A stretch of DNA of 35,268 nt from an uncultured Solirubrobacteraceae bacterium. Its GTDB lineage: Bacteria; Actinomycetota; Thermoleophilia; Solirubrobacterales; Solirubrobacteraceae. This document shows positions 9,496-22,737 of the stretch, piece by piece; position 1 is the stretch's first letter; the number at the start of each line of letters is the position of its first letter. A program made the position numbers and the translations under genes. The notes under the pieces are model-generated. The model worked only from the letters and a program-made list of their open reading frames with translations. It did not search any database and was not told the origin of the DNA. Location: positions 1 to 35,268 of the forward strand of contig CADCVQ010000022.1 of assembly GCA_902806175.1 (NCBI GenBank), written 5' to 3'.

Positions 9496-11097
9496 TCAGT
9501 GCCCCCGCGCCAGCAGGATGACCGGCACGGTGCGAAGCATGAGCTTGATGTCGTTCCACAGCGACCACTCCGCCACGTAGAGGTAGTCGAGCTTGACCAT
9601 CTCCTGGAACGGGATCGCGGTGCGACCGAGCACCTGCCACGGGCCCGTCAGCCCCGGCGCCAGCCGCAGGCGGTCGCGGTGGCGTCCGATGATGTGGTGA
9701 TCCTCGTTGGGCACGAGCGGTCGCGGTCCCACGAGGCTCATCTCGCCCCGCAGCACGTTCCACAGCTGGGGCAGCTCGTCGAGGCTCATGCGCCGCAGCC
9801 GTCGCCCGATCGCCGTCAGGCGCGGATCGTCGGCGATCTTGAACATCGGGCCGTCGGCCTCGTTGAGGTGGGCGAGCTGCGGCTTGAGCGAATCGGCGTC
9901 GGCGATCATCGTGCGGAACTTGAGCATCCGAAACGGGCGGTCGTCTCGTCCGATGCGCTGCTGGGCGAACAGCACGGGACCTGGAGAGGTGAGCTTGACA
10001 GCGAGCGCGATCGCTGCCAGCAGTGGACTGATGACCAGCAGCATCATTCCGGCAAGCACCACGTCGACCGTACGCTTGAGCGCCATCGCCGAGCGCGTCC
10101 GGCTGGCGCCTCGGATGCCATGCAGGGTCATGCCCTCGATGTGGTCGACCTCGACGCGGTGTCCCATCGCCTCGAACAGACGCGGAACGACGGTGAGCTT
10201 CAGGTTCAGCGCCTTGCTGGCCGCCACCACCTCGAGCAGATCCTCATGCCCCAGGGAGCTAAAGGCGATCACGACGCGCTCCACGCCGAACTCGCGGCAG
10301 ACCTCGCTGAACCGAGCGTGGTCGCCGAGGCGGGGAGAGCCGTGTTTGGGAATGCCGTTACTCCCAGAGCCGTTGCTGGCGACGGGTTGCAGGTACGCAT
10401 CCGCCCCGCGCACGCGGACCGACCGGTCATGCTCCGCATCGGCCTCGACATCGACGAAGCCCACCAGCCTCACTCCGTACTCCGGATGTCCCGCGAGCTT
10501 CCGCGCGATCAGCTGCGCGACCGCGCCGGAGCCGACGATCAAGCACCGCTCGGGTTCATGCCAGCGCCGCACAAGCCCGCGCGCGGCGCTGCGCAGCGTC
10601 GTGACGAGGAGCAGGCCGAACCCCATGAGCCCCAACGCGTCGCCGCGGCCGAACTCCACGCCGGTCAGTGGAGGCGCGGCGATGAAGATCGAGGCGCCTG
10701 CGATGAAGACCGCCAGCGCCAGGCGGGGCACCTCGTCGAGCGTGCCGTTATGGATCAGGTGACGGTCGCGGTCATAGAGCCCCAGGAAGCGGACGAGCAG
10801 CACCCAGAGCGGAAGGCAGGCGAGGATCACGAGCGCCGTGCCCAGGCCGCCGGCTCCGATACCGGCGAGCTCGACGCAGCCGTATGCACCCAGCAGCGCC
10901 AACACGTCGACGAGCATGAGCATCCGATGCCGGCTGCGGTCCCGACCGCTCAGCGCGTTCTGCCTCGGACTGACGAGCTCGTCGTAAGCGGGCAGGGGCT
11001 GTCCCTGAGGCCTAGTGGGCTCGCTGTGCCCGGGGTCCGGTAGTTCGGTGGTTTCGTCCGCGTATCGGCGTTCCGTCGCCACTCGTGCCAGCCTCAA
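9496..11097 (-). CDS. Initiating sugar-1-phosphate transferase for exopolysaccharide (WbaP/CpsE type)
   Basis: Polyprenyl-phosphate sugar-1-phosphate transferase that starts repeat-unit synthesis by loading the first sugar on undecaprenyl phosphate. The 533-residue protein has an N-terminal block of transmembrane helices (about residues 60-165), a central Rossmann-like CoA-binding-type domain beginning CLIVGSGAVAQLIARKL, and the C-terminal catalytic domain. In the latter are KRTVDVVLAG with its membrane helix, QQRIGRDDRPFRMLKFRTM, SLDELPQLWNVL and SLVGPRPL, all hallmarks of the family. The longest frame starts at a TTG (11097) preceded by AGGAG at very short spacing; a GTG at 11082 is an alternative. 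It is divergent from the lasso operon and reads back toward the glycoside-hydrolase-like gene, with 56 bases between their 3' ends. Confidence 0.92.
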   Translation of the reverse strand: MRLARVATERRYADETTELPDPGHSEPTRPQGQPLPAYDELVSPRQNALSGRDRSRHRMLMLVDVLALLGAYGCVELAGIGAGGLGTALVILACLPLWVLLVRFLGLYDRDRHLIHNGTLDEVPRLALAVFIAGASIFIAAPPLTGVEFGRGDALGLMGFGLLLVTTLRSAARGLVRRWHEPERCLIVGSGAVAQLIARKLAGHPEYGVRLVGFVDVEADAEHDRSVRVRGADAYLQPVASNGSGSNGIPKHGSPRLGDHARFSEVCREFGVERVVIAFSSLGHEDLLEVVAASKALNLKLTVVPRLFEAMGHRVEVDHIEGMTLHGIRGASRTRSAMALKRTVDVVLAGMMLLVISPLLAAIALAVKLTSPGPVLFAQQRIGRDDRPFRMLKFRTMIADADSLKPQLAHLNEADGPMFKIADDPRLTAIGRRLRRMSLDELPQLWNVLRGEMSLVGPRPLVPNEDHHIIGRHRDRLRLAPGLTGPWQVLGRTAIPFQEMVKLDYLYVAEWSLWNDIKLMLRTVPVILLARGH

Positions 11098-11186: not shown

Positions 11187-11227
11187 CAGTCCCTCGCGGG
11201 TCTGCACCGGGCGTGCTCGTGGCCGTC

Positions 11228-11233
11228 TACGCT
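11228..11233 (+). promoter_or_regulatory. -10 box of the lasso biosynthetic operon (leaderless)
   Basis: TACGCT is separated by exactly 6 bases from the GTG at 11240, which places the transcription start at the start codon. The same hexamer is found at the precursor promoter (18584) and before the Wzy-like gene (33265). No clear -35 element is visible. Confidence 0.5.
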
Positions 11234-11239
11234 GCGGGG

Positions 11240-12181
11240 GTGGCCTCCGAGCAACACGCGTCGCCTTCGGCCGAGGCCAAGCTCACCGTGTGGTCGCTGC
11301 ACGTAGACGGGCTGACGGCAGAGCTCATGCGGGGCTTCGCCGAGCGAGGCGTCCCATTCATCCTGCTCAAAGGTCCCGCGATCGCCCGCTGGCTGTACGA
11401 CGACGGCAGCGTGCGCCCGTACGCCGACTGCGACCTGCTCGTCGACCCGCGCCAGATCACGGCCGCCCAAGCGATCCTGCGCGAGCGCGGCTTCGAGGAC
11501 ACCGCCAGCCCGCTGGCGCACCCGCGCAAGGACTCGCACGAGTGGCAGCGCGCCCAGCACCACGTGGATCTGCACACGACCCTGATCGGGATTCGGGCTG
11601 CCCCGCAGGAGGTGTGGGACGCTCTGTCGTCCACGACCGACAGCGAGCAGGTGGGCGGGATGGTGGTCCGGGTGCTCGACCGGCCCGGCCGCACGTTGCA
11701 CGTGGCCCTGCATGCCGCTCAGCATGGCCGCGACGAGGAGAAGCCGCTCGAGGATCTGCGCCGCGCCCTCGAACTGGTTCCGGAGCAGACGTGGCGGGAT
11801 GCCGCGGATCTGGCGCGGCGCCTGCGCGCCACGGAGGCGTTCGCCACCGGCCTACGGCTGCTGCCCGCCGGTTCGGCACTCGCGACGCGCCTCGACCTGG
11901 TCTCAGCAGCCTCGGCCGAGGCCACGCTGCGCCTCGAGCCGGTACCGCTCGCGCTCGCCTTGGAGCACCTGGCAGAGACCCGAGGATGGCGTGCTCGCCT
12001 GGATATCCTGTGGCGTGAGCTGTTCCCGACCGTGGCGTTCATGCGCTGGTGGTCGCCGTTGGCGCGTCGCGGTCGGCTGGGGCTCATCGCCGCGTACTGC
12101 TGGCGTCCGCTGTACCTCCTGCTCCATCTCGGGCCCGGGTTCGTCGCATGGCAACGTGCTCGTCGTGGCGCGGCCCGATGA
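11240..12181 (+). CDS. Nucleotidyltransferase family protein of the lasso cluster (NTP_transf_5 type)
   Basis: Protein of 313 residues resembling the uncharacterised nucleotidyltransferases (NTP_transf_5) repeatedly found in lasso-peptide clusters that also carry HprK-like kinases, such as paeninodin-type clusters. The core motif is visible as FILLKGPAIARWLYDDGSVR followed by YADCDLLVDP, with an Asp-x-Asp pair likely to bind metal and nucleotide. An HxD-like element (HHVDLHTTL) follows. A likely role is adding a nucleotidyl or related group to the phosphorylated peptide, but this is inference. The GTG at 11240 is preferred over GTG 11213 because a -10 box lies 6 bases upstream. Its stop overlaps the ATG of the ABC ATPase gene (ATGA), so it belongs to the lasso operon. 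Confidence 0.8.
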   Translation: MASEQHASPSAEAKLTVWSLHVDGLTAELMRGFAERGVPFILLKGPAIARWLYDDGSVRPYADCDLLVDPRQITAAQAILRERGFEDTASPLAHPRKDSHEWQRAQHHVDLHTTLIGIRAAPQEVWDALSSTTDSEQVGGMVVRVLDRPGRTLHVALHAAQHGRDEEKPLEDLRRALELVPEQTWRDAADLARRLRATEAFATGLRLLPAGSALATRLDLVSAASAEATLRLEPVPLALALEHLAETRGWRARLDILWRELFPTVAFMRWWSPLARRGRLGLIAAYCWRPLYLLLHLGPGFVAWQRARRGAAR

Positions 12182-12897
12182 GCGCGCGGCCGAGCGCTGA
12201 CGCCGCGCTCGTGGCAGGAGATCAACCTCGGTTCGATCCGGACGGCCGCGCCCCCGCCCTGATCGTCGAGGAAGTTACGAAGGTGCTCGGGAAGCGCGCC
12301 ATCCTCGACGGCGTCGACCTCGCGCTGCCAGCCGGCACGACGGCGTGGATCAGCGGCGGCAACGGCGCCGGCAAGACGACGCTCATGCGGCTCATGGCCG
12401 GGCTGATCGTCGCCGACCGCGGAACGGTCAGCTTCGACGGGCTGCGTGTTGACACCGATCGCCGCGCCTACCAGACAAAGGTCGGCTTTCTCGCCGCGGG
12501 CGACAGCGGGTTGTACGCCCGCCTGACGGTGCGCCAGAACCTCGACTTCTGGGCGGGCCTGGCGTTCGTCCCGCGATCGCGGCGCCGCGCGACCGTCGCC
12601 CGCGCGGTCGAGCGCTTCGGGCTGACCGATCTTGCCAGCCGGCGGGCGGACCGCCTGTCGTTGGGACAGCGCCAGCGGGTGCGCCTGGCCCTGACCTTCC
12701 TCCACGCACCCCGGCTGGTGCTGCTCGACGAGCCGTCGGCGAGCCTCGACGACGACGGGGTCGCGCTCCTGCTGAGCGCGGTGGACGAGCACGCGGCGAC
12801 CGGCGGCACGACGGTCTGGTGCGCGCCGGCGCGCCAGACCGAGGTCAGGCACAACCGCGCGTTCGTCGTGCGAGACGGACGACTGGAGCCGGTATGA
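12178..12897 (+). CDS. ABC transporter ATP-binding protein (lasso peptide export/immunity)
   Basis: ATPase subunit of a two-component ABC-2-type exporter, 239 residues. It has Walker A (GGNGAGKTT), a signature written LSLGQRQRVR instead of the usual LSGGQ, and Walker B (LVLLDEPSASLDDDG). The final switch region is short (TTVWCAPARQ, without the usual His). It pairs with the permease that follows through an ATGA overlap. In lasso clusters such a transporter usually exports the mature peptide and gives self-protection; no other substrate is suggested by the context. Confidence 0.9.
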   Translation: MSARPSADAALVAGDQPRFDPDGRAPALIVEEVTKVLGKRAILDGVDLALPAGTTAWISGGNGAGKTTLMRLMAGLIVADRGTVSFDGLRVDTDRRAYQTKVGFLAAGDSGLYARLTVRQNLDFWAGLAFVPRSRRRATVARAVERFGLTDLASRRADRLSLGQRQRVRLALTFLHAPRLVLLDEPSASLDDDGVALLLSAVDEHAATGGTTVWCAPARQTEVRHNRAFVVRDGRLEPV

Positions 12898-13706: not shown

Positions 13707-14188
13707 TGGCTGCCGCGCGATCCGATCGCCGCAGGCCTCGGCCGCTCGCGGTCGCGGAGCTCGCGGCGCCGTTGCCCGCGCGCCGAAAGCTGCGGCTCAC
13801 CGGAGAGGTCCTCGCTGCCTACTGCCGCGTGCGCTGGTGGCTGCGCCAAAACGAACTGCCCGAGGTCGTGCGGCGGCTGCGCGGATGGCAACCCGTCGGC
13901 GCGGGGGCGTCGGGTCAAGCGCGCGAGCCGGGCGAGGCGGAGTACGAGAGCGGGCTGCGGTTGGGCCGGGCGGTCGTGCGCACACTGCGCCTGCTGCCGA
14001 CGGACGGCCGCTGCCTCATGCGCTCGCTCGTCCTGACGGGGCTCCTCGCTCGCCGCGGGATCTCCAGCACGCTCATCATCGGAGTGCGTCCGGCGCCGGA
14101 GTTCGCGGCGCACGCCTGGGTCGAGCACGAGCGTCGCCCGCTCCTGCCGCCGGGTGAGCGGGGCTACGGCCGCCTGACGGAGATGTAG
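13706..14188 (+). CDS. Lasso peptide leader peptidase B2 (transglutaminase-like)
   Basis: B2-type leader peptidase with a transglutaminase-like Cys-His-Asp fold that removes the leader from the precursor. The 160-residue length is typical. The catalytic Cys sits in DGRCLMRSLVLTGLLARRG and the catalytic His in FAAHAWVEHE, the two diagnostic motifs of lasso B2 proteins. The N-terminal part has the usual helix AAYCRVRWWLRQNELPEVVRR. The ATG at 13706 overlaps the last base of the permease stop codon. The gene ends GYGRLTEM followed by TAG at 14186, a normal family ending. The downstream kinase continues immediately in the -1 frame. Confidence 0.92.
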   Translation: MAAARSDRRRPRPLAVAELAAPLPARRKLRLTGEVLAAYCRVRWWLRQNELPEVVRRLRGWQPVGAGASGQAREPGEAEYESGLRLGRAVVRTLRLLPTDGRCLMRSLVLTGLLARRGISSTLIIGVRPAPEFAAHAWVEHERRPLLPPGERGYGRLTEM

Positions 14189-14301
14189 GGGCTCCCGTCG
14201 CGCACTGGGGCTTCAACGCTTTCGGCCTCGGGCTGCGCTCGGAGCTGACGTTCGCCGGTCTGACACCCTCCATCCCGCTGGAGCCCGTCGTCTCGATCCG
14301 C

Positions 14302-15108
14302 GTGATCGGTGCGGCACAGCTCGACGGCGCCTGGACCGGCGCGAAGCACACGTCGGCTGGGGTCCTGCCCGACGGCTGCCGCTGCGTGGCCGAGCGAGCC
14401 GCCGGCGGCGAGCTGCGCATCACCTACGGCGACCGGGCGACGTATCTGCTGTCGGCGGACGGGCGGACGCTCCTGTGCTCGCCGGCGCAGCTCGATGAGC
14501 AGGCATGGCGACGCTTCCTGCTCGACGCCGTCCTGCTCAAGGCCAGCGAGGCCCACGGCCTGGAGGCGCTGCACGCCAGCGCCGTCGAGGGGCCGGATGG
14601 CGTGCTCGCGTTCGCGACGCAGGCCGGCGGCGGAAAGTCGAGCCTTGCTTCGGAGCTCGTCCGCCGCGGACACCCATTCTTTGCGGATGACGCGCTGACG
14701 ATGCGACGCGACGACGCGGCGATCCGGGCGCATCCCGCCCCACCGCTCATGAACTTCCCGCTCGAGCACCCCGAGGGCTTCGCCGCCGTCGAGCTCGGGA
14801 CGGTGCTGGACGTCGTGGGTGCCGAAGCCTGGCTGGCCGTGCGCCATGCCGCCACCGGACCATGCCGGGTCGCGGCCATCCACCTCCTGGACCGGCGCCC
14901 GGGCCTGCGGCTCGGCCTCGACCTGCTGGCGCCGAGCCCGATGCCTCTGCTGGACCACGTGCTCGCAGACCGCGGGTCGCCGACGCGGATGGCCCGTCGT
15001 TTCGAGTTGCTCGCCGACCTCGTGGAAGACACGGCGATCTACCGGCTGCGCGCCGATCCGGCGACGCCGGTGCGCCGGCTCGCGGATCTCGTGGAGGGCT
15101 CCCTATGA
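14302..15108 (+). CDS. HprK-like serine kinase 1 of the lasso cluster (true N-terminus uncertain)
   Basis: Kinase related to the C-terminal domain of HPr kinase/phosphorylase; relatives in paeninodin-type clusters phosphorylate a Ser of the lasso precursor. Visible motifs are LEALHASAVEG, the P-loop TQAGGGKSSLASEL, and HPFFADDALTM with the catalytic Asp pair. From the first canonical start (GTG 14302) the product has 268 residues. However, the same frame is open from 14158, and 14188-14301 encodes a family-like N-terminus (HWGFNAFGLGLRSELTFAGL, compare RAFGIDLHANFRAAGI in kinase 2). No ATG, GTG or TTG precedes that segment. The real protein may start at a CTG (14233) or another rare codon, or be made by a -1 frameshift from the B2 gene; a sequencing error is also possible. 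It ends in an ATGA overlap with the PqqD-like gene. Confidence 0.8.
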   Translation: MIGAAQLDGAWTGAKHTSAGVLPDGCRCVAERAAGGELRITYGDRATYLLSADGRTLLCSPAQLDEQAWRRFLLDAVLLKASEAHGLEALHASAVEGPDGVLAFATQAGGGKSSLASELVRRGHPFFADDALTMRRDDAAIRAHPAPPLMNFPLEHPEGFAAVELGTVLDVVGAEAWLAVRHAATGPCRVAAIHLLDRRPGLRLGLDLLAPSPMPLLDHVLADRGSPTRMARRFELLADLVEDTAIYRLRADPATPVRRLADLVEGSL

Positions 15109-15521
15109 CAAGCGATTGGGACAACGGTGAATCCAGGCGCTACCCTTCGGCGGCTTCGAAGGACGGCCATGAGGCGTCCACCCACGAACCCGAGGAAGCG
15201 CGCATGGTCGAGGACACGCCGAACAGAGACGCGACGTTGCTGGCATCCTCCGTCCGCCTGCCCGAGCACGTCGTGCACCGAGGATTCGCGGCGGAGACCG
15301 TAGTCCTGAACCTCAAGACGGGGAAGTACCACGGGCTCAACCCGGTGGGCGGGCGCATGCTCGAGGTCCTCGAGCAGACGGAGACCGTGCAGCAGGCGGC
15401 CCGGCAGCTCGCGGCGGAGTACGAGCAGCCGATCGAGACGATCGAAGAGGATCTCTGCAGCCTGTGCGCCGACCTCGCCGCCCGTGATCTGATCGAGACG
15501 AATGCCCCCGGGGCTGACTGA
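15105..15521 (+). CDS. Lasso peptide RRE protein B1 (PqqD family)
   Basis: PqqD-like RiPP recognition element that binds the precursor leader and delivers it to the B2 peptidase. The diagnostic part is LASSVRLPEHVVHRGFAAET, VLNLKTGKYHGLNPVGGRML and a C-terminal helix pair ending LAARDLIET. From the ATG at 15105, which overlaps the kinase 1 stop, the product has 138 residues. An internal ATG at 15204 after GAGGAAG gives 105 residues, closer to usual B1 length. The extra 33 residues are polar and unlike the family, so the shorter form may be the main product. The 3' end overlaps kinase 2 by 20 bases. Confidence 0.9.
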   Translation: MTSDWDNGESRRYPSAASKDGHEASTHEPEEARMVEDTPNRDATLLASSVRLPEHVVHRGFAAETVVLNLKTGKYHGLNPVGGRMLEVLEQTETVQQAARQLAAEYEQPIETIEEDLCSLCADLAARDLIETNAPGAD

Positions 15522-16542
15522 ACCGCGCCCCGCGACGGGCGCGTCTGACTCCCGGACGCCGGCCTGGACGGGACGCGCTTTCGGGATCGACCTGCACGCG
15601 AACTTCCGCGCCGCCGGGATCGTCGAGCAGGCCGGCCCGACAGCCCCGCACGAGGACGATGGCGTCCCCGCGCGCCGCAGCCATCTGCAGCTGGTATCTG
15701 ACGTGGCGCTGGAGGCGGCCTGGCCGGCGGCGGGCACGAGGACGCTGGGCTACCTGCACGACGACGAGGGTCGCAGCGTGCTGACGATCGCCGAGCACCC
15801 GGATGCCGGCTTTCGGCTCGAGGCCTCGTACTACGGCCGGTTCGTGGTCAGCGCCGACGGGGGCCGCGTCCTGTGTGCGCCGACCCCGGTCGCGGATTGG
15901 GAGTGGCAGGCCTTCGTGGTCGGGCAGATCCTGCCGCTGCTGGTCGTGCTGCACGGCCTCGAGGGGCTGCACGGCAGCGCCGTCTCCTTCGCAGACGATG
16001 CGATCGGCCTGGTGGCGTCCTCGTGCGGCGGCAAGAGCTCGCTGGCGGTCAACCTGGTCCGCCGGGGCGCCGCGTTCGCGGCCGACGACGTGCTCGCCCT
16101 CGAGCGCGACGGCGCCGGCACCGCGCTGCACCCGGGCCCTGCCCTGGCGAGCGTGCGCCATGCCGAGGCCGACGTCATCGGGCCCGCGGGACTCGCCGAG
16201 CTGGGCACCGTGGTAGGGCGCAACGACCACGAGCTGCGGCTCGCGATGCAGCGCGACGCGCGTCCGCTGAACCTCGCCGCGCTGTACTTCATCGAGCGGG
16301 CCGAGCATGAGCCATCGCTGACGATCGAGGCCATCGAGCCCGATCCGCTTCAACTGCTGAGCGGCAGTCACAACGCCTTCGTACGGACGGCGGAGCGGTT
16401 GGTCGGCCAGCTCGACCTGTACGCGCACGTATCGCGCTCGGTGCCGGCCTTTCGTGCGGTGGTCTGGCCCGGCATCGACGCCTATGGCCTGGCTTGCCTC
16501 ATCCAGGACCACGCCCTCCAGATGATCGCGGGCTCGTCGTGA
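15502..16542 (+). CDS. HprK-like serine kinase 2 of the lasso cluster
   Basis: Second HprK-like kinase, 346 residues, clearly homologous to kinase 1 but divergent. Landmarks are RAFGIDLHANF near the N-terminus (about residues 25-35), LEGLHGSAVSF, the P-loop ASSCGGKSSLAVNL (about 171-184) and AAFAADDVLALERDG with the Asp pair. The P-loop differs from kinase 1 (CGGKSS against GGGKSS), but the Lys and Ser are kept in both, so both may bind ATP. The N-terminus is extended by about 25 polar residues. The ATG lies within the last codons of the PqqD-like gene and the stop overlaps the cyclase GTG. Having two kinases in one lasso operon suggests two phosphorylation events or one non-catalytic partner; the sequence alone cannot decide. 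Confidence 0.85.
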   Translation: MPPGLTEPRPATGASDSRTPAWTGRAFGIDLHANFRAAGIVEQAGPTAPHEDDGVPARRSHLQLVSDVALEAAWPAAGTRTLGYLHDDEGRSVLTIAEHPDAGFRLEASYYGRFVVSADGGRVLCAPTPVADWEWQAFVVGQILPLLVVLHGLEGLHGSAVSFADDAIGLVASSCGGKSSLAVNLVRRGAAFAADDVLALERDGAGTALHPGPALASVRHAEADVIGPAGLAELGTVVGRNDHELRLAMQRDARPLNLAALYFIERAEHEPSLTIEAIEPDPLQLLSGSHNAFVRTAERLVGQLDLYAHVSRSVPAFRAVVWPGIDAYGLACLIQDHALQMIAGSS

Positions 16543-18512
16543 TCCGGGCGATCGCAGGCGTCTACGATCCGAACGCCACGGACGCGCTGCGGGCCCGCGT
16601 GGTCAGCGCCCTGGAACCCGACGGTGCCGCCGAGGCGATACAGGACGGTCCGCTCGCCGTCGCCTGGACCGCAGGCCCGACGTCGTCTCCGGGCGGCGGT
16701 GAGGAGCCGCTGTGCGTGCTCGATGGTCATCTCACCAATGTCGGCGAACTCGCGGAGCGCGCGGGCCTGGCGCCGGGGCAGGACCCGGAACGCGTGCTCG
16801 TCGGCGTCTACGCGCGCTTCGGGGAGGGCATGTTCGAGCAGCTGCGCGGAGACTGGGTGGTGCTCGTCTGGGACCGGCGCACGCGGCGGCTGCTCGTCGC
16901 TCGCGATCAGGTCAACGCGCGGCCGTTGTTCGTGCGCATTGCCGGCGACCGGGTCCTCTTCGGCTCGGAGGTCCGAAACCTCCTGCGGCTGGTCGATCGA
17001 CGCCCCGCTCCGGACAGGGGCGCCGTCGCGCGGTGGTTGGGGCACAGCCGCCTGCCGCCCAACCGGACGCTGTACGACGGCATCACGCGGCTGCAGGCCG
17101 GGCATCTGCTGCGGATCGTCGACGGCCGCGCCGCGCTGCGACGCTACTGGACGCCGGTGCTGGGCCCGCGCCTGGACGGGTCGCGCGAGGATCTCGCCGC
17201 GCAGCTGCGAGCCCATGTCATCAGCGCAGTCGAGCGCCGTTGCGAGCCGGGCGTCACCGCGATCACGCTCAGCGGCGGGCTGGACTCCACCACGCTTGCC
17301 GCCGTGAGCACGCGCTGCCTGCCGCCCGAGCGCGCTGCGGGCCGCACCACCTATTCGATGACGTTCCCCGGGGACGCTGGCAGCGACGAGACCGAGCAGA
17401 TCGACACGACCATCGCCGAGCTCGGGCTCGCGAACACGCGGATCGCCGTCGAGAGCAGCGGCATCCTGTCGGGATCGCTGGAGTACCTACGCACCTGGGA
17501 GCTGCCGCCGACCGCCACAACGCTCGCCTACTGGCTGCCGCTCGGGCACCGGATCGCCGAGGACGGCATCAGGATCATCCTCGACGGCGAGGATGGTGAC
17601 GACCTGTTCGGGTACTCGCCGTGGCTCGCGGCCGACCTGCTGCGGCAGGGGCGCCCGCTGGCCATGCTGCGGCTGCTGCGCCGGACTCCCGAGCTGTCCG
17701 ACGTCCCGACGCGCAGGATGCTCGCATCGGCGTACAGGCTGGGCGTCAAGGGCAGCATGCCGCATGTCGTGCACAACGTCATGCGGCGGGTGCGCGGGCC
17801 GGGGGTCACCGTGCCCGCATGGCTCAACGACGCGTCGGCACGCGCCTACGACGAGAGCGAGGTTTCCTGGCAATGGAAGCTGCCGGGCCAGCCCTTGTGG
17901 TGGACGAGCCGCGTCGACACGCTGATGACCGGCGGGTTCCCCGCCTCGCTCTTTGACCACGCGCGCCGGCGAGCGGCGATGGCGGGACTGGAGCGTCGCC
18001 ACCCGTACGCCGACGTGGACCTGTTCGGCTTCGTGGACCGGCTGCCGCCCGAACTGGCCTTCGACGCGACGTTCAACCGGCCGCTGCTGCGTCAGAGCAT
18101 GGCCGGGCTCGTTCCCGACCGCATCCGCCTGCAGGCGCGCAAGATGGACCTCAACACGTTCGTGGACCGCTGCATCGCCGCCGACCTGCCCATCATGCGG
18201 CCCCTCATGCGCGCCGACGACGCCGAGGTTCGAGCGTACGTGCGCCCGGAGGCGCTGCAGGAGCTGTTCGCGCCGACGACCGTGCTGACGACGACGCGGA
18301 CCTCACACGGTCATCTCGGATTTCGTGCGTGGCGCCTGATGGAGATGGAGTGCTGGCTGCGATCTCAGGAGCGGCCGACGTTCGCGGACGACATGCTGGC
18401 GCGAGCGGATGGTCTCGCCCGACCCGTCTATACATTTGCCCACGTCGTCGCCCCCGGCGCCGACGCGGAACGCAAGCCGACGGCGGATCAAGGCGCGTCA
18501 CGCGGCGCCTGA
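16539..18512 (+). CDS. Lasso cyclase (asparagine synthetase B homologue)
   Basis: Lasso peptide cyclase of the AsnB-like family, which adenylates the ring-forming Asp/Glu side chain and joins it to the core N-terminus. The 657-residue product keeps the two-domain AsnB layout. The N-terminal glutaminase-like domain starts IRAIAGVY and lacks the nucleophilic Cys2 of true amidotransferases, as expected for a cyclase. The synthetase domain has the PP-loop TLSGGLDSTTLA (about residues 243-254) and the LDGEDGDDLFGY motif (about 348-359). GTG 16539 overlaps the stop of kinase 2 (GTGA). Contrast this with the true asparagine synthetase-like gene at 25004-26878, which begins MCGICG. It is the last gene before the precursor, which has its own promoter. 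Confidence 0.93.
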   Translation: MIRAIAGVYDPNATDALRARVVSALEPDGAAEAIQDGPLAVAWTAGPTSSPGGGEEPLCVLDGHLTNVGELAERAGLAPGQDPERVLVGVYARFGEGMFEQLRGDWVVLVWDRRTRRLLVARDQVNARPLFVRIAGDRVLFGSEVRNLLRLVDRRPAPDRGAVARWLGHSRLPPNRTLYDGITRLQAGHLLRIVDGRAALRRYWTPVLGPRLDGSREDLAAQLRAHVISAVERRCEPGVTAITLSGGLDSTTLAAVSTRCLPPERAAGRTTYSMTFPGDAGSDETEQIDTTIAELGLANTRIAVESSGILSGSLEYLRTWELPPTATTLAYWLPLGHRIAEDGIRIILDGEDGDDLFGYSPWLAADLLRQGRPLAMLRLLRRTPELSDVPTRRMLASAYRLGVKGSMPHVVHNVMRRVRGPGVTVPAWLNDASARAYDESEVSWQWKLPGQPLWWTSRVDTLMTGGFPASLFDHARRRAAMAGLERRHPYADVDLFGFVDRLPPELAFDATFNRPLLRQSMAGLVPDRIRLQARKMDLNTFVDRCIAADLPIMRPLMRADDAEVRAYVRPEALQELFAPTTVLTTTRTSHGHLGFRAWRLMEMECWLRSQERPTFADDMLARADGLARPVYTFAHVVAPGADAERKPTADQGASRGA

Positions 18513-18636: not shown

Positions 18637-18750
18637 ATGTACGAGAAGCCCACGGTACGCGACTACGGCGACCTGACCGAGCTCACGGCGGTCGTCCAGC
18701 AGGGCAGCGAGGAAGTCGGCGTCAAGAGCAACGTCGTCAAGGTCGCCTGA
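18637..18750 (+). CDS. Lasso peptide precursor (A gene), 37 residues
   Basis: Short gene, MYEKPTVRDYGDLTELTA followed by a 19-residue predicted core. The leader fits the lasso pattern YxxPx[L/V]xxxGx5T exactly: Tyr2, Pro5, Val7, Gly11 and Thr17. Thr at -2 places the cleavage between Ala18 and Val19, giving the core VVQQGSEEVGVKSNVVKVA. Ring closure would use Glu25 or Glu26 (core positions 7 or 8). Position 1 is Val, not the common Gly, Ala, Ser or Cys, and there is no C-terminal Ser for the kinases; Ser24 lies in the ring and Ser31 in the tail. If cleavage is one residue earlier, the core starts with Ala and Glu is at 8 and 9. A ribosome binding site (AGAGGAG) precedes the ATG, and a hairpin follows the stop. 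Precursor assignment is strong; core boundaries are inferred. Confidence 0.88.
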   Translation: MYEKPTVRDYGDLTELTAVVQQGSEEVGVKSNVVKVA

Positions 18751-18857: not shown

Positions 18858-19607
18858 GTGGAGGGCACCCTGAGGCAAGCTTCGACAACGGATAGTCGGG
18901 AACCCCGTGCGGATGTCAGGGAGGGCACGGCGCCAGGCGCCGGTCGCGCGCCGCAACTCGAGGTGGGGGTGACGGCGCACGAGCAAGCGGTCTCCCGGCG
19001 CATCTGCGCGGCGCTCGCCGGTGACGGGCTCGGCCCAACGCTCGAGGCGGCCACAGCCGAGCAGCTCGTCGCCGCCGCCGCGCGCGGGCGGCCGCAGGTC
19101 GTGGTGTTCGCCGGCCAAAGGTCGGGCTCCGAGCGCGCCGCGGACATCCGGCTCGTGCGCGACGCGATCGCCGGCGTCCACGCGGTCGTCGTCTCGTCGA
19201 CGCCGGGCGGTCGTGGTGTACGTAAGGCGTTGCGGGCGGGGGCCACCGGGTTCGTCTTCGAATCGCAGATCGAGTCGGCGCTGACGATCACCGTGAGAGC
19301 GGTGCTCGCGGGACAGGTCTCGATCCCCGTCCAGCTCATCCACCACACCGATCAGCCGGCGCTGTCGGCACGCGAGAAGCAGATTCTCGGAATGGTCGTG
19401 TTGGGCTTTCAGAACCAGGAGATCGCCGCGAAGCTGCATCTTGCGGAGACCACGGTCAAGAGCCATCTCTCGTCGGTGTTCAAGAAGCTCGATGTCGGCT
19501 CGCGCAAGGAGGCCGCGGCCTTGGTGCTCGATCACCGCGAGGGCCTGGGGCCGGGGATCTTGACCATGCCCGGCGCCCAAGCGCACTCCGGCGACGGGCG
19601 GCCGTGA
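18858..19607 (+). CDS. LuxR-type response-regulator-like transcription factor
   Basis: DNA-binding regulator of NarL/LuxR type, 249 residues from GTG 18858. The C-terminal helix-turn-helix is clear: LSAREKQILGMVVLGFQNQE and LAETTVKSHLSSVFKKLDV. The N-terminal part looks like a receiver domain (KALRAGATGFVFES near its end), but the strand that should carry the phospho-accepting Asp reads QVVVFAGQ. It is therefore probably a pseudo-receiver, or it is controlled by a ligand or partner. No sensor kinase is nearby. A -10 candidate, TAGGTT, lies at 18832-18837; the exact start is uncertain. Its stop overlaps the GTG of the FkbM methyltransferase gene. Position at the end of the lasso cluster makes it a candidate regulator of the peptide and/or EPS genes. 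Confidence 0.82.
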   Translation: MEGTLRQASTTDSREPRADVREGTAPGAGRAPQLEVGVTAHEQAVSRRICAALAGDGLGPTLEAATAEQLVAAAARGRPQVVVFAGQRSGSERAADIRLVRDAIAGVHAVVVSSTPGGRGVRKALRAGATGFVFESQIESALTITVRAVLAGQVSIPVQLIHHTDQPALSAREKQILGMVVLGFQNQEIAAKLHLAETTVKSHLSSVFKKLDVGSRKEAAALVLDHREGLGPGILTMPGAQAHSGDGRP

Positions 19608-20434
19608 CCACCCGCAACGTCAAGGCGTACACCCGGAAGGCCCTGCCCGCACCGTTGTATCGCCTGTATCGCAAGCGGCGGATCGCGATGCTCATCGGCG
19701 GATACGAAAACCGACAGGTGACACACATGTACGGCGGTGTGAGGCTCACGCTCGAGCTGGCCGACGGGCCATCGGAGGCCTACTACGACCGTGACTGGGC
19801 CAGGCCCGCGGAGATCGAGCATGCGCGCGGACGTGGTCTTCAGCCTGGCGCGCGGGTGTTCGACCTCGGCGCGCACCAGGGGGTGGTGGCGCTGATGCTG
19901 GCGAACCTCGTCGGTCCTACCGGCCGCGTGATCGCGCTCGAGGCGGACCCCCACAACGCGACGATGGCCGAGCGCAACCGGGTACTCAACGGGATGACCA
20001 ACCTCGAGATCGTCCACGCGGCCGCCGCGGAGACGACGGGTACCCTGCTCTTCACGGGGGGCTTGAACGGCCGCGTCGAGAATCGGGGCACAAGGTGGGG
20101 CGCCAACTGGGGCAGGCTGGAGGTGACGGCCCTCTCGGTGGACCATCTTGCTGCCCGTCACGGATCCCCCGATGTCGTGCTCATCGACGTGGAGGGTTAC
20201 GAGGATCACGTCCTGGCCGGCGCCGAGACGACGATTGCCGCGGGAGTGACGACGTTCCTCGTCGAGGTCCACGTCGGGTGCGGGCTCGATGTGCCACCCC
20301 AACGGATCGAGCGCTTCTTCGACTCCCGCTACAGCGTCGAGATGGCCACGGTCGGGAGCGCGAACGTCGAGCGCTATGACCCGCGCTCGCCGATCCTGCA
20401 CTCCCGCTTCTTCCTCTTCGCCGCGCCTCGCTGA
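19604..20434 (+). CDS. FkbM-family SAM-dependent methyltransferase
   Basis: Methyltransferase of the FkbM family, 276 residues, usually an O-methyltransferase acting on sugars or secondary metabolites. The SAM-binding motif I is VFDLGAHQGVVALMLANLVG, followed by the acidic motif VIALEADPHN, and the family hallmark VVLIDVEGYEDHVLAGA. The GTG start overlaps the LuxR gene stop (GTGA), so the two are co-translated. It stands between the lasso cluster and the Wzx flippase and could methylate either the EPS repeat unit or the lasso peptide; FkbM proteins are common in EPS loci, so the first is more likely. Confidence 0.85.
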   Translation: MTTRNVKAYTRKALPAPLYRLYRKRRIAMLIGGYENRQVTHMYGGVRLTLELADGPSEAYYDRDWARPAEIEHARGRGLQPGARVFDLGAHQGVVALMLANLVGPTGRVIALEADPHNATMAERNRVLNGMTNLEIVHAAAAETTGTLLFTGGLNGRVENRGTRWGANWGRLEVTALSVDHLAARHGSPDVVLIDVEGYEDHVLAGAETTIAAGVTTFLVEVHVGCGLDVPPQRIERFFDSRYSVEMATVGSANVERYDPRSPILHSRFFLFAAPR

Positions 20435-20446
20435 GGCGAGCGACGG

Positions 20447-21769
20447 ATGACCGAGACCGGTTTCGTTCGCGCGCTGCTCGCGCGCCCGTTCGCCCGTGAC
20501 GTCGCGCTGAGCTACGTGTTCACGGTGGCCAGCCTGGTCGCCAACCTGCTGACCGGCATCATCATCGCGCGGACGCTCGGCGCCGCCGGGCGCGGCGAGC
20601 TGGCGGCGATCCTCGCCTTCACGCAGGTCGCCACCTGGATCTTCGCGATGGGCTGCAATCAGGCGGCGTCGTTTCACCTCGCCCGTCATCCGACCGACGG
20701 CGCGCGGATCATCGGCACCTGGCTGCTGTTGCTCGCGCCGTTCGCGGTTCTCGGCGTGGCCGCGTCGATCGCAGTGCTGCCGATCGCGCTCGGCGCGCAG
20801 CGCGACGCCGTCGTGATCCTCGGACAGCTCTTCGCCACGACGCTGATCCTGGCGCTGGCCATGGAGCTGCTGCAGGGCGTCATCCTCGGAGACCATCGCT
20901 TCCTGCAGTGGAACCTGCTGCGCTTCGCCCAGCCGACCGGCGTGGCGGTGATCTACGCGGTGCTGCTGGTGCTGGACGCCCTGACGGTGACGAGCGCGCT
21001 GGTCGCGAACGGCGGGATGGTCGCCCTGATCCTGGTCGTGAGCGGCGCCGGGCTGCTGCGCCGCCACGGCCGCCCGCGCGTCGACCGCCGCCTGGCGCGC
21101 TCGACGTTCTCCTACGGCTTCCGCGTTCACGGCTCGAACGTCGCGGGGACCGTGAACGCCCGGTTGGACCTCGCCATCATCCCGGCCTTCCTGGGTGCTG
21201 CCAGCGTGGGCCTCTACTCCGTGGCCACCAACGTGGCTGCCATCGTGGGTACGCTCGCCGGATCGATCGTCGCGCTCGTCCTACCGGCCGCCGCCCGCCG
21301 CGCCGACCGCGGCCCGGCGACGGTCGTGGCGTCGATGTACATCGCGTTCGGGATCGGCGCCCTGGGCGCGCTCGTGATCGGGGCGCTGGCCGAGCCCACG
21401 CTGCGGCTGCTCTACGGGGCGGAGTTCGAGGCCGCGTCCGGACCGCTGCGCGTGCTGCTGGTCGGCTACGTCCTGCTGATGCCGGGCTTGGTGCTCTCCC
21501 AAGGCCTCAGTGCGGTCGACCGCCCGTTCACCGGCACCATCCCGCACCTCGCCGGCGCCGCCGTGACCGTCGTGGGACTGCTGCTGTTCCTGTCCGGCGG
21601 GGGGATCATGGCCGCGGCGTGGATCACCACGGCGGCCTACGCTGTGGTCGTCGTCAGCGCGCTCGTGCTCTACCGCAGCGTGACGCGCCTGCCGTGGCGG
21701 GCGCTCTCGCCGGCACGCACCTTGTCGGATCTGCGTTCGCACACGGTCCCGCGGGCCGACCAGCCCTGA
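20447..21769 (+). CDS. Wzx-like polysaccharide flippase (MATE/MVF superfamily)
   Basis: Multi-pass membrane protein of 440 residues with about twelve hydrophobic helices, starting DVALSYVFTVASLVANLLTG and IIIARTLGAAGRGELAAILA, the typical N-terminus of lipopolysaccharide/EPS flippases. It should move the undecaprenyl-linked repeat unit across the membrane. It starts 12 bases after the FkbM gene with GAGGCGAG as ribosome binding site, so the LuxR, FkbM and Wzx genes are probably one operon. Confidence 0.88.
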   Translation: MTETGFVRALLARPFARDVALSYVFTVASLVANLLTGIIIARTLGAAGRGELAAILAFTQVATWIFAMGCNQAASFHLARHPTDGARIIGTWLLLLAPFAVLGVAASIAVLPIALGAQRDAVVILGQLFATTLILALAMELLQGVILGDHRFLQWNLLRFAQPTGVAVIYAVLLVLDALTVTSALVANGGMVALILVVSGAGLLRRHGRPRVDRRLARSTFSYGFRVHGSNVAGTVNARLDLAIIPAFLGAASVGLYSVATNVAAIVGTLAGSIVALVLPAAARRADRGPATVVASMYIAFGIGALGALVIGALAEPTLRLLYGAEFEAASGPLRVLLVGYVLLMPGLVLSQGLSAVDRPFTGTIPHLAGAAVTVVGLLLFLSGGGIMAAAWITTAAYAVVVVSALVLYRSVTRLPWRALSPARTLSDLRSHTVPRADQP

Positions 21770-21834
21770 GCGGACTCGAGCCACGGTCCCGGCGACGTCG
21801 GTGCTGTGGCGGGCTACGTCCCGCTTGCGGCACG

Positions 21835-21840
21835 TAGCCT
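21835..21840 (+). promoter_or_regulatory. -10 box for the family-2 glycosyltransferase gene (leaderless)
   Basis: TAGCCT ends 6 bases before GTG 21847, with no ribosome binding site in between, the same geometry as at 11228. Confidence 0.5.
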
Positions 21841-21846
21841 GTTGGC

Positions 21847-22737
21847 GTGCCCGGCATCTCAGCGCTGGTGTTGACCAGGAACGAGGAGGCGTACATCGGC
21901 CGCTGCCTCGCGAGCGTGCAGTGGGCCGACGAGATCGTCGTCCTCGACGCCGGCAGCGAGGACGCCACCCGTGAGGTGGCAGCCCGGCAGGGCGCGGTGG
22001 TTCACGAGCAGGAGTGGCTCGGTTACGCGGCGCAGCGCAACCGCGCGGCCGAGCTCGCGGCGAACGACTGGGTGTTCTTCGTCGATGCCGACGAGATCGT
22101 CACCGACGAGCTGGCGCGGTCGATCCTCGATGTTGCGGCTGGTTCGCCAGACCCCCGCGACGGCTACAGCGTCCTGCGCCGCGGCGACTTCCTCGGAATC
22201 CTGCTGCCCAACGAGCAGCGGCGCTCTCGACGCAGGGCGTTCGTCCGGTTGTACAACCGCCGCTACGGGAGCTGGGATCCGGAGCAGCTCGTCCACGAGG
22301 GCGTCACCGTCCCCGGACGCATGCGTCCGCTCTGCGGCGTGCTGCTGCACTGGCGCGGTTACGGCATGGACGAGTACATCCCGACCTTCAACCGCTACGC
22401 GACGCTCGAGGCGGAGATGCTGGCCCTGAGCGGCGTGCGTGCCACAGGCGTCAAGCTGCTATTGCGGCCGATCCTGCGGTTTCTGTGGATCTACGTCCGA
22501 AAGGGGGGATTTCGGCTCGGCGCCCGCGGTGTGATCTGGGCGCTGCTTATCGCCAGTGCCGAGTTCTTCCGCTACGCCAAGCTATGGGAGCGCGAGCATC
22601 CCGTTGCGACACGGCATCCTCCCGCGGAGCTCACCGCTGCGGTCTCACGGGCTCGTCGCGCGCGGATCAGCGGCTGGGCCTCGCAAGCACCGCGCGGTAG
22701 GCCGCCAGCACCGCGTCGACGTGCGCCCCGAGGCTGA
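21847..22737 (+). CDS. Family-2 glycosyltransferase, WaaE/KdtX-like
   Basis: GT-A fold glycosyltransferase, 296 residues, similar to the WaaE/KdtX group. The N-terminus ISALVLTRNEEAYIGRCLAS, the motif DEIVVLDAGSEDAT and the metal-binding DxD in VFFVDADEIV are typical, and VHEGVTVPG follows where the group has its acceptor region. The C-terminus has hydrophobic stretches (LLLRPILRFLWIYV and GVIWALLIASAEFF) that may attach it to the membrane. The last 24 codons overlap the end of the convergent glycosyltransferase gene and encode an Arg/Pro-rich tail, probably read-through into low-constraint sequence. It probably adds a sugar to the EPS repeat unit. Confidence 0.87.
   Translation: MPGISALVLTRNEEAYIGRCLASVQWADEIVVLDAGSEDATREVAARQGAVVHEQEWLGYAAQRNRAAELAANDWVFFVDADEIVTDELARSILDVAAGSPDPRDGYSVLRRGDFLGILLPNEQRRSRRRAFVRLYNRRYGSWDPEQLVHEGVTVPGRMRPLCGVLLHWRGYGMDEYIPTFNRYATLEAEMLALSGVRATGVKLLLRPILRFLWIYVRKGGFRLGARGVIWALLIASAEFFRYAKLWEREHPVATRHPPAELTAAVSRARRARISGWASQAPRGRPPAPRRRAPRG

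What the first reader, a model, noticed from the sequence alone, without database searches (positions are those of the whole stretch)
14302..16542. Two different HprK-like kinases but no C-terminal Ser in the core
In characterised kinase-containing lasso systems (paeninodin type), the HprK-like enzyme phosphorylates the C-terminal Ser of the precursor. Here the peptide ends in Ala. The only Ser residues are core position 6 (in the ring, before the Glu pair) and 13, and there is no Thr in the core. Both kinases keep the P-loop Lys/Ser and the Asp pair, so both look able to bind ATP. They may target two internal Ser residues, act as a heteromer, or act on something else such as a nucleotide or sugar.
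Basis: partly seen in the sequence, partly recalled or inferred. Interest (0 to 1): 0.7.

Follow-up and report, generated by a model that had tools for sequence, protein, structure and literature searches.

The report
Two-kinase lasso-peptide gene cluster
A soil actinobacterium's gene cluster for a knotted (lasso) peptide carries two related but distinct kinase genes, a pairing found again in four other genomes of the same order, and they probably put phosphate on serines inside the peptide rather than at its end.

Summary
A lasso-peptide cluster (NTase, ABC transporter, B2, kinase 1, B1, kinase 2, cyclase C, precursor A) encodes two different HprK-like kinases. The core, VVQQGSEEVGVKSNVVKVA, has only Ser6 (ring) and Ser13 (tail), no Thr and no C-terminal Ser. 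Both kinases model confidently with the HprK/PEPCK fold and keep the His-Lys-Asp-Asp residues.

The "missing C-terminal Ser" is not anomalous. Only 13 of 42 kinase-linked precursors surveyed here end in Ser, and published kinases (BsfK, LppK) phosphorylate core Ser3.

What looks new is that kinase 1 and kinase 2 form two sister clades confined to this order, found together in five genomes. Their shared C clade also contains seven single-kinase clusters that keep only a kinase-2-type enzyme. Single-kinase cores carry a hydrophobic residue followed by Ser/Thr near the C-terminus (7 of 7 clusters); two-kinase cores never do (0 of 5).

Best reading: both are precursor kinases acting on internal hydroxyls before lasso folding. 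Assigning kinase 1 to Ser6 and kinase 2 to Ser13 is a guess. No Ser-ended second precursor was found in the genome.

Caveat: kinase 1 has no canonical start codon upstream of its predicted N-terminal strands.

The parts
11213..12181 (+). Nucleotidyltransferase-like protein (PF14907 NTP_transf_5), common partner of lasso kinases
   Evidence: Pfam 102 bits, cut-off 31
12049..12897 (+). ABC transporter ATPase (ORF bounds; real start probably later)
   Evidence: PF00005
12894..13706 (+). ABC-2 type permease
   Evidence: PF01061
13706..14188 (+). B2 leader peptidase
   Evidence: NF033537 lasso_biosyn_B2, 73.8 bits, cut-off 33
14185..15108 (+).
   Evidence: PF07475 sub-threshold; alignment with K1 relatives; AlphaFold2 pLDDT 92.9; HprK fold Z 13.5
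15204..15521 (+). B1 (PqqD-like RiPP recognition element); an in-frame upstream ATG lies at 15105
   Evidence: PF05402 E 1e-15
15502..16542 (+). Kinase 2 (K2), HprK-like
   Evidence: PF07475 sub-threshold; AlphaFold2 pLDDT 90.0; HprK fold Z 15.3
16539..18512 (+). C, asparagine-synthetase-like lasso cyclase
   Evidence: PF00733; NF033535 178 bits, below its 525-bit cut-off
18637..18750 (+). Precursor A; leader 18637-18690, core from V1 at 18691; Ser6 codon 18706-18708, Ser13 codon 18727-18729, Glu7/Glu8 18709-18714
   Evidence: NF033521 lasso_leader_L3

Best explanation
K1 and K2 are two paralogous HprK-like tailoring kinases of one lasso-peptide pathway. Together with B1, which holds the leader, they most likely phosphorylate hydroxyl residues inside the core of the linear precursor; B2 then cuts after the leader and C closes the ring on Glu7 or Glu8. 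The only possible core sites here are Ser6 in the ring and Ser13 just behind it. Shown here: cluster membership, near-continuous overlap of the genes from B2 to C, the HprK fold, intact catalytic residues, two ancient co-occurring clades, and the absence of a C-terminal Ser in every two-kinase precursor found. Inferred: that both enzymes act on this peptide, and on internal Ser. Guess: K2 takes tail Ser13, because its single-kinase relatives pair with tail Ser and because this position is Ser/Thr in most related cores; K1 takes ring Ser6.
For: Gene ends overlap: the permease stop overlaps B2 (TGATG), the K1 stop overlaps an ATG in the B1 frame (ATGA), B1 and K2 overlap by 20 nt, K2 and C share GTGA. 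His-Lys-Asp-Asp is kept in both. HprK/PEPCK fold for both: HprK Z 13.5 and 15.3, rmsd 2.0-2.2 A over 126-134 residues. K1 is one clade (96/89) and K2 plus single-kinase relatives another (96/89); together 100/98, and none of 20 or so added Actinomycetota kinases falls inside. K1 and K2 occur together in the window, G014, G054, G331 and G449. Cores with a hydrophobic residue plus Ser/Thr in the last six residues: 7 of 7 single-kinase clusters, 0 of 5 two-kinase (Fisher about 0.001, post hoc). Every two-kinase core has a ring Ser/Thr (9 of 9). Ser13 aligns with the Ser/Thr after Lys in 4 of 6 G054/G014 cores with a GxEDGxxK motif. Internal-Ser precedents: BsfK, LppK.
Against: No biochemical or expression data. 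Ring Ser/Thr is also common in single-kinase cores (6 of 8), so the ring-kinase idea has little statistical weight. Ser6 is not conserved among related cores. K1 has no canonical start codon and a Thr for the first Walker A glycine, so it could be damaged in this assembly or organism. In G014 the precursors lie about 700 kb from the kinases and no B2 was found beside them. The C-terminal motif comparison was devised after seeing the data and the clusters are related.
Confidence: 0.6

Rival explanations
1. Both kinases act on the same residue (most likely Ser13): one adds the first phosphate and the other extends it to a polyphosphate or prepares it for the nucleotidyltransferase.
For: Known lasso kinases polyphosphorylate one Ser and an NTase adds hexoses to it in pseudomycoidin; an NTase is in this cluster. 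Ser13 is the better conserved position.
Against: Single known kinases already polyphosphorylate alone. No NTase was detected beside the G331, G449 or G014 two-kinase clusters.
Confidence: 0.2
2. K1 and K2 form an obligate hetero-oligomer in which one subunit catalyses and the other binds substrate or regulates.
For: Sister paralogues; HprK works as a hexamer (own knowledge); K1 was found in a lasso cluster only with K2.
Against: Both keep all four catalytic residues, and K2-type enzymes occur alone in seven related clusters.
Confidence: 0.15
3. One kinase, probably K1, acts on something other than this peptide, such as a sugar, a nucleotide or another protein.
For: The cluster sits beside polysaccharide-type genes; HprK-fold enzymes have varied substrates (own knowledge).
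Against: K1 is in the overlapping lasso gene run here and in lasso clusters in all five genomes; it is the sister of K2.
Confidence: 0.1
4. K1 is a decaying gene in this organism and only K2 works.
For: No canonical start codon before the predicted N-terminal strands; Thr in place of the first Walker A glycine; a degenerate orphan K1 relative (DE for DD, no lasso genes around it) exists in G261.
Against: About 310 codons remain open with all conserved residues; a single indel in a draft assembly would explain the missing start.
Confidence: 0.12

Closest known systems
Paeninodin-type lasso kinases (PadeK, ThcoK, SyanK, PsmK)
   Same: HprK-like kinase beside B1, B2 and C; His-Lys-Asp-Asp motif; NTase partner as in pseudomycoidin
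   Different: Those have one kinase and a C-terminal Ser target; here two kinases and a C-terminal Ala
BsfK of Bradymonas sediminis (PMC10368454)
   Same: Lasso precursor kinase with no C-terminal Ser on its substrate; target Ser inside the ring
   Different: One kinase; target Ser3 (Gln here); BsfK lies outside the K1/K2 clade and has a long branch
LppK of linear polyphosphorylated peptides (PMC13381572)
   Same: HprK-like kinase with RRE and NTase; internal Ser3 phosphorylated
   Different: No macrolactam cyclase in that family; cyclase and B2 present here
G563 locus (L167), another actinobacterial family
   Same: Several HprK-like genes near lasso genes
   Different: Three HprK-like genes between two cyclases and two precursors; not orthologous to the K1/K2 pair

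Membership tests
HprK/PEPCK-fold kinases | HprK core fold | tested here: met
   K1 Z 13.5 (126 residues, 2.0 A) and K2 Z 15.3 (134 residues, 2.2 A) to 1kkl_A
HprK/PEPCK-fold kinases | Catalytic His, P-loop Lys and Asp pair | tested here: met
   H130, K151, D168, D169 in K1; H157, K178, D195, D196 in K2
Pfam PF07475 Hpr_kinase_C | Score over the gathering cut-off of 33.3 bits | tested here: not met
   26.7 and 22.9 bits
True HPr(Ser) kinase/phosphatase (TIGR00679) | Equivalog cut-off of 240 bits | tested here: not met
   24.4 and 16.2 bits
HprK-related kinase A/B (TIGR04352, TIGR04355) | Equivalog cut-off of 200 bits | tested here: not met
   14 to 23 bits
Lasso peptide clusters | A, B1, B2 and C genes together | tested here: met
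   Leader and B2 models over cut-off; PqqD and Asn_synthase domains
Lasso peptide clusters | Asp/Glu at core 7-9 after leader T(-2) | tested here: met
   Glu7 and Glu8
Lasso peptide clusters | Threaded lariat product | not testable with these tools
   Needs NMR or MS of the product
Paeninodin-type phosphorylated lasso peptides | C-terminal Ser in the precursor | tested here: not met
   Core ends in Ala
Paeninodin-type phosphorylated lasso peptides | Kinase phosphorylates the precursor | not testable with these tools
   No assay
BsfK type | Ser/Thr at core position 3 | tested here: not met
   Gln3
Linear polyphosphorylated peptides (LPP) | Absence of macrolactam cyclase | tested here: not met
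   C present at 16539-18512

The most novel reading that the evidence does not exclude
A lasso-peptide class in which two dedicated, anciently diverged kinases phosphorylate two different residues, one in the macrolactam ring and one in the tail, giving a doubly phosphorylated lasso peptide; K1 was lost where the target returned to a single Ser near the C-terminus.
Probability: 0.35. Interest if true: 0.65.

Novelty: new variant of a known kind. Interest (0 to 1): 0.45.

Why it matters
No conserved two-kinase lasso cluster turned up in the open literature searched, though subscription papers were not available. The pair gives a natural test of what decides site choice by HprK-like peptide kinases: related clusters with and without K1 differ consistently in where their core Ser/Thr residues lie. 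The survey also shows that C-terminal Ser is a poor general rule for predicting kinase-modified lasso peptides.

Tried and rejected
Unseen precursor ending in Ser: genome searched with the leader model and B2 model; only the C70 cluster was found, its precursor ends in Pro and it has its own kinase. K1 without a lasso cluster: one case (G261), degenerate and next to sucCD. The same pair elsewhere in the phylum: none in a spread of 396 genomes; G563 has three HprK-like genes but of other clades and beside two cyclases. Single loss of K1: the C tree mixes one- and two-kinase clusters and needs three changes, so repeated loss (or gain) is likelier; the B1 tree is unresolved. G014 precursor: absent from its kinase locus, found about 700 kb away. 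A dehydroalanine route through phosphoserine was considered; no lyase-like gene was noted and nothing supports it. The primary papers on paeninodin and pseudomycoidin are not held, so reviews were used.

Full report
WHAT IS THERE. The window holds a lasso-peptide cluster on the + strand: a nucleotidyltransferase-like gene, an ABC transporter pair, B2, kinase 1 (K1), B1, kinase 2 (K2), cyclase C and, 124 bases further on, the precursor A. Genes from the permease to C overlap or nearly so (TGATG, ATGA, a 20-nt overlap, GTGA), as in one translationally coupled operon. The genome appears to belong to the order Solirubrobacterales, class Thermoleophilia; this is inferred from the named contigs nearest in sequence.

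THE PRECURSOR. A reads MYEKPTVRDYGDLTELTA-VVQQGSEEVGVKSNVVKVA. The leader passes NCBIfam lasso_leader_L3 and has Y-17, P-14, V-12 and T-2 in the register used for lasso leaders (PMC10368454). The core therefore starts at V1, with Glu7/Glu8 as ring acceptors.

THE KINASES. Both are HprK-like but remote: below the Pfam cut-off and far below the HPr kinase and HprK-related equivalogs. Profiles of each find HprK in the PDB by sequence. AlphaFold2 models are confident (pLDDT 92.9 and 90.0) and match HprK over 126-134 residues at 2.0-2.2 A, as well as PEPCK, a known structural relative. The His, P-loop Lys and last Asp are invariant and the first Asp nearly so in 17 relatives. K1 needs about 39 residues before GTG 14302 to complete its fold, but the frame there has no ATG, GTG or TTG. 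K1 also has Thr in place of the first Walker A glycine.

IS THE MISSING C-TERMINAL SER STRANGE? Not by itself. Reviews describe C-terminal Ser as the hallmark of paeninodin-type systems, but BsfK phosphorylates ring Ser3 of a precursor ending in Asp and LppK phosphorylates Ser3 of a linear relative. In the loci gathered here, 45 leader-matching ORFs lie within 8 kb of an HprK-like gene and 15 end in Ser. Removing three evident false matches (L074 5845, L168 4547, L171 5064) leaves 13 of 42. This is a convenience sample, not a census.

THE TWO-KINASE PAIR IS REAL AND OLD. Searches of the order (232 genomes) and of a spread of the class (399) and phylum (396) found K1 with K2 in five genomes: the window's, G014, G054, G331 and G449. 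L030, the named MAG contig JAJKHV010000123, appears to be the same contig as G449:C123. Gene order varies: K1-ABC-ABC-B1-B2-K2-C-A in G331 and G449, K1-ABC-A-ABC-B1-K2-B2-C-A-A in G054, K1-B1-K2-C in G014, and B2-K1-B1-K2-C-A here. In a tree of 44 kinases K1 is one clade (96/89) and K2 with the single-kinase enzymes its sister (96/89); the two together have 100/98. One long-branched sequence (L092) attached to the K1 side in that tree and was left out of the second. Adding kinases from other Actinomycetota leaves both clades intact. In the cyclase tree the 12 clusters of this group with a C sequence form one clade (100/100), with one- and two-kinase clusters mixed, so K1 was probably ancestral and lost more than once. 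This is inference; several forks are weak.

CORES AND KINASE NUMBER. Seven single-kinase clusters (eight precursors) all have a hydrophobic residue followed by Ser/Thr within the last six residues (LTFS, LTFT, AFSLP, GYSG, GRLS and so on). None of nine precursors from two-kinase genomes does; shuffled cores give 18-25%. By cluster this is 7/7 against 0/5, Fisher about 0.001, but the motif was chosen after looking and the clusters are related. All nine two-kinase cores have a Ser/Thr in the ring, but so do six of eight single-kinase cores. Six cores from G054 and G014 share a GxEDGxxK motif, with Ser/Thr following the Lys in four; the window's GSEEVGVKS aligns with it, placing Ser13 at that position.

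MECHANISM. The best reading is that both kinases act on the linear precursor, with B1 presenting the leader as shown for BsfB1, and place phosphate on Ser6 and/or Ser13 before B2 and C act. K2 on the tail and K1 on the ring is the simplest division, since K2 relatives acting alone go with tail Ser and two such cores have no ring hydroxyl at all. I hold that split at about one in three. Rivals are relay phosphorylation of one Ser, a K1/K2 hetero-oligomer, a non-peptide substrate for one kinase, and a decaying K1.

The genome (97% complete, draft) has one other lasso-type cluster, on contig C70 (L029), with its own B1, B2, C and kinase. Its precursor ends ...FTSP and its kinase is outside the K1/K2 clade. 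No precursor ending in Ser was found, though small genes on unassembled parts could be missed.

VERDICT. A new variant of kinase-tailored lasso peptide clusters. The paradox as framed is weak; the conserved pair of kinases is the interesting part.

Noticed in passing
14158-14302: The K1 frame is open through here and codes for predicted N-terminal strands, but has no ATG, GTG or TTG and is out of frame with the end of B2: possible assembly indel, unusual start, or early decay.
   Followed up: partly
L029 (G000:C70:9000-28000): Second lasso-type cluster in the same genome; precursor YEAPEIADYGSIADHTF-DNPGQGNKSATPMATDKFGEFSHPFTSP has no Asp/Glu at positions 7-9. Related leaders (GSI[AS]DHTF) in L089, L090, L169 and L170 mostly lack the ring acid too, and L029, L089 and L090 share a TDKFGE[FY]S motif.
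   Followed up: no
L151 (G014:C1 about 3249500) and L152 (G054:C25 about 80700): Precursors with the GxEDGxGK[ST] core lie far from their enzymes: about 700 kb away in G014, and on a different contig as a stand-alone copy in G054.
   Followed up: partly
L030 11991-12191 and L074 5575-5835: Two-kinase precursors with core ACLGG[ST]GGD...GC.S.P carry two conserved Cys (position 2 and near the end), suggesting a disulfide.
   Followed up: no
L075 9023-10150 (G261): Orphan K1 relative with DE instead of DD, next to sucC/sucD and no lasso genes: likely a relic.
   Followed up: partly
L167 (G563:C1:2611000-2630500): Two cyclases, two precursors and three HprK-like genes within about 14 kb in another actinobacterial family.
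   Followed up: partly
9496-11097 and 19604-22737: Polysaccharide-type genes flank the cluster (a sugar phosphotransferase-like protein, an FkbM-like methyltransferase, a flippase-like membrane protein, a glycosyltransferase; named by eye from the translations).
   Followed up: no
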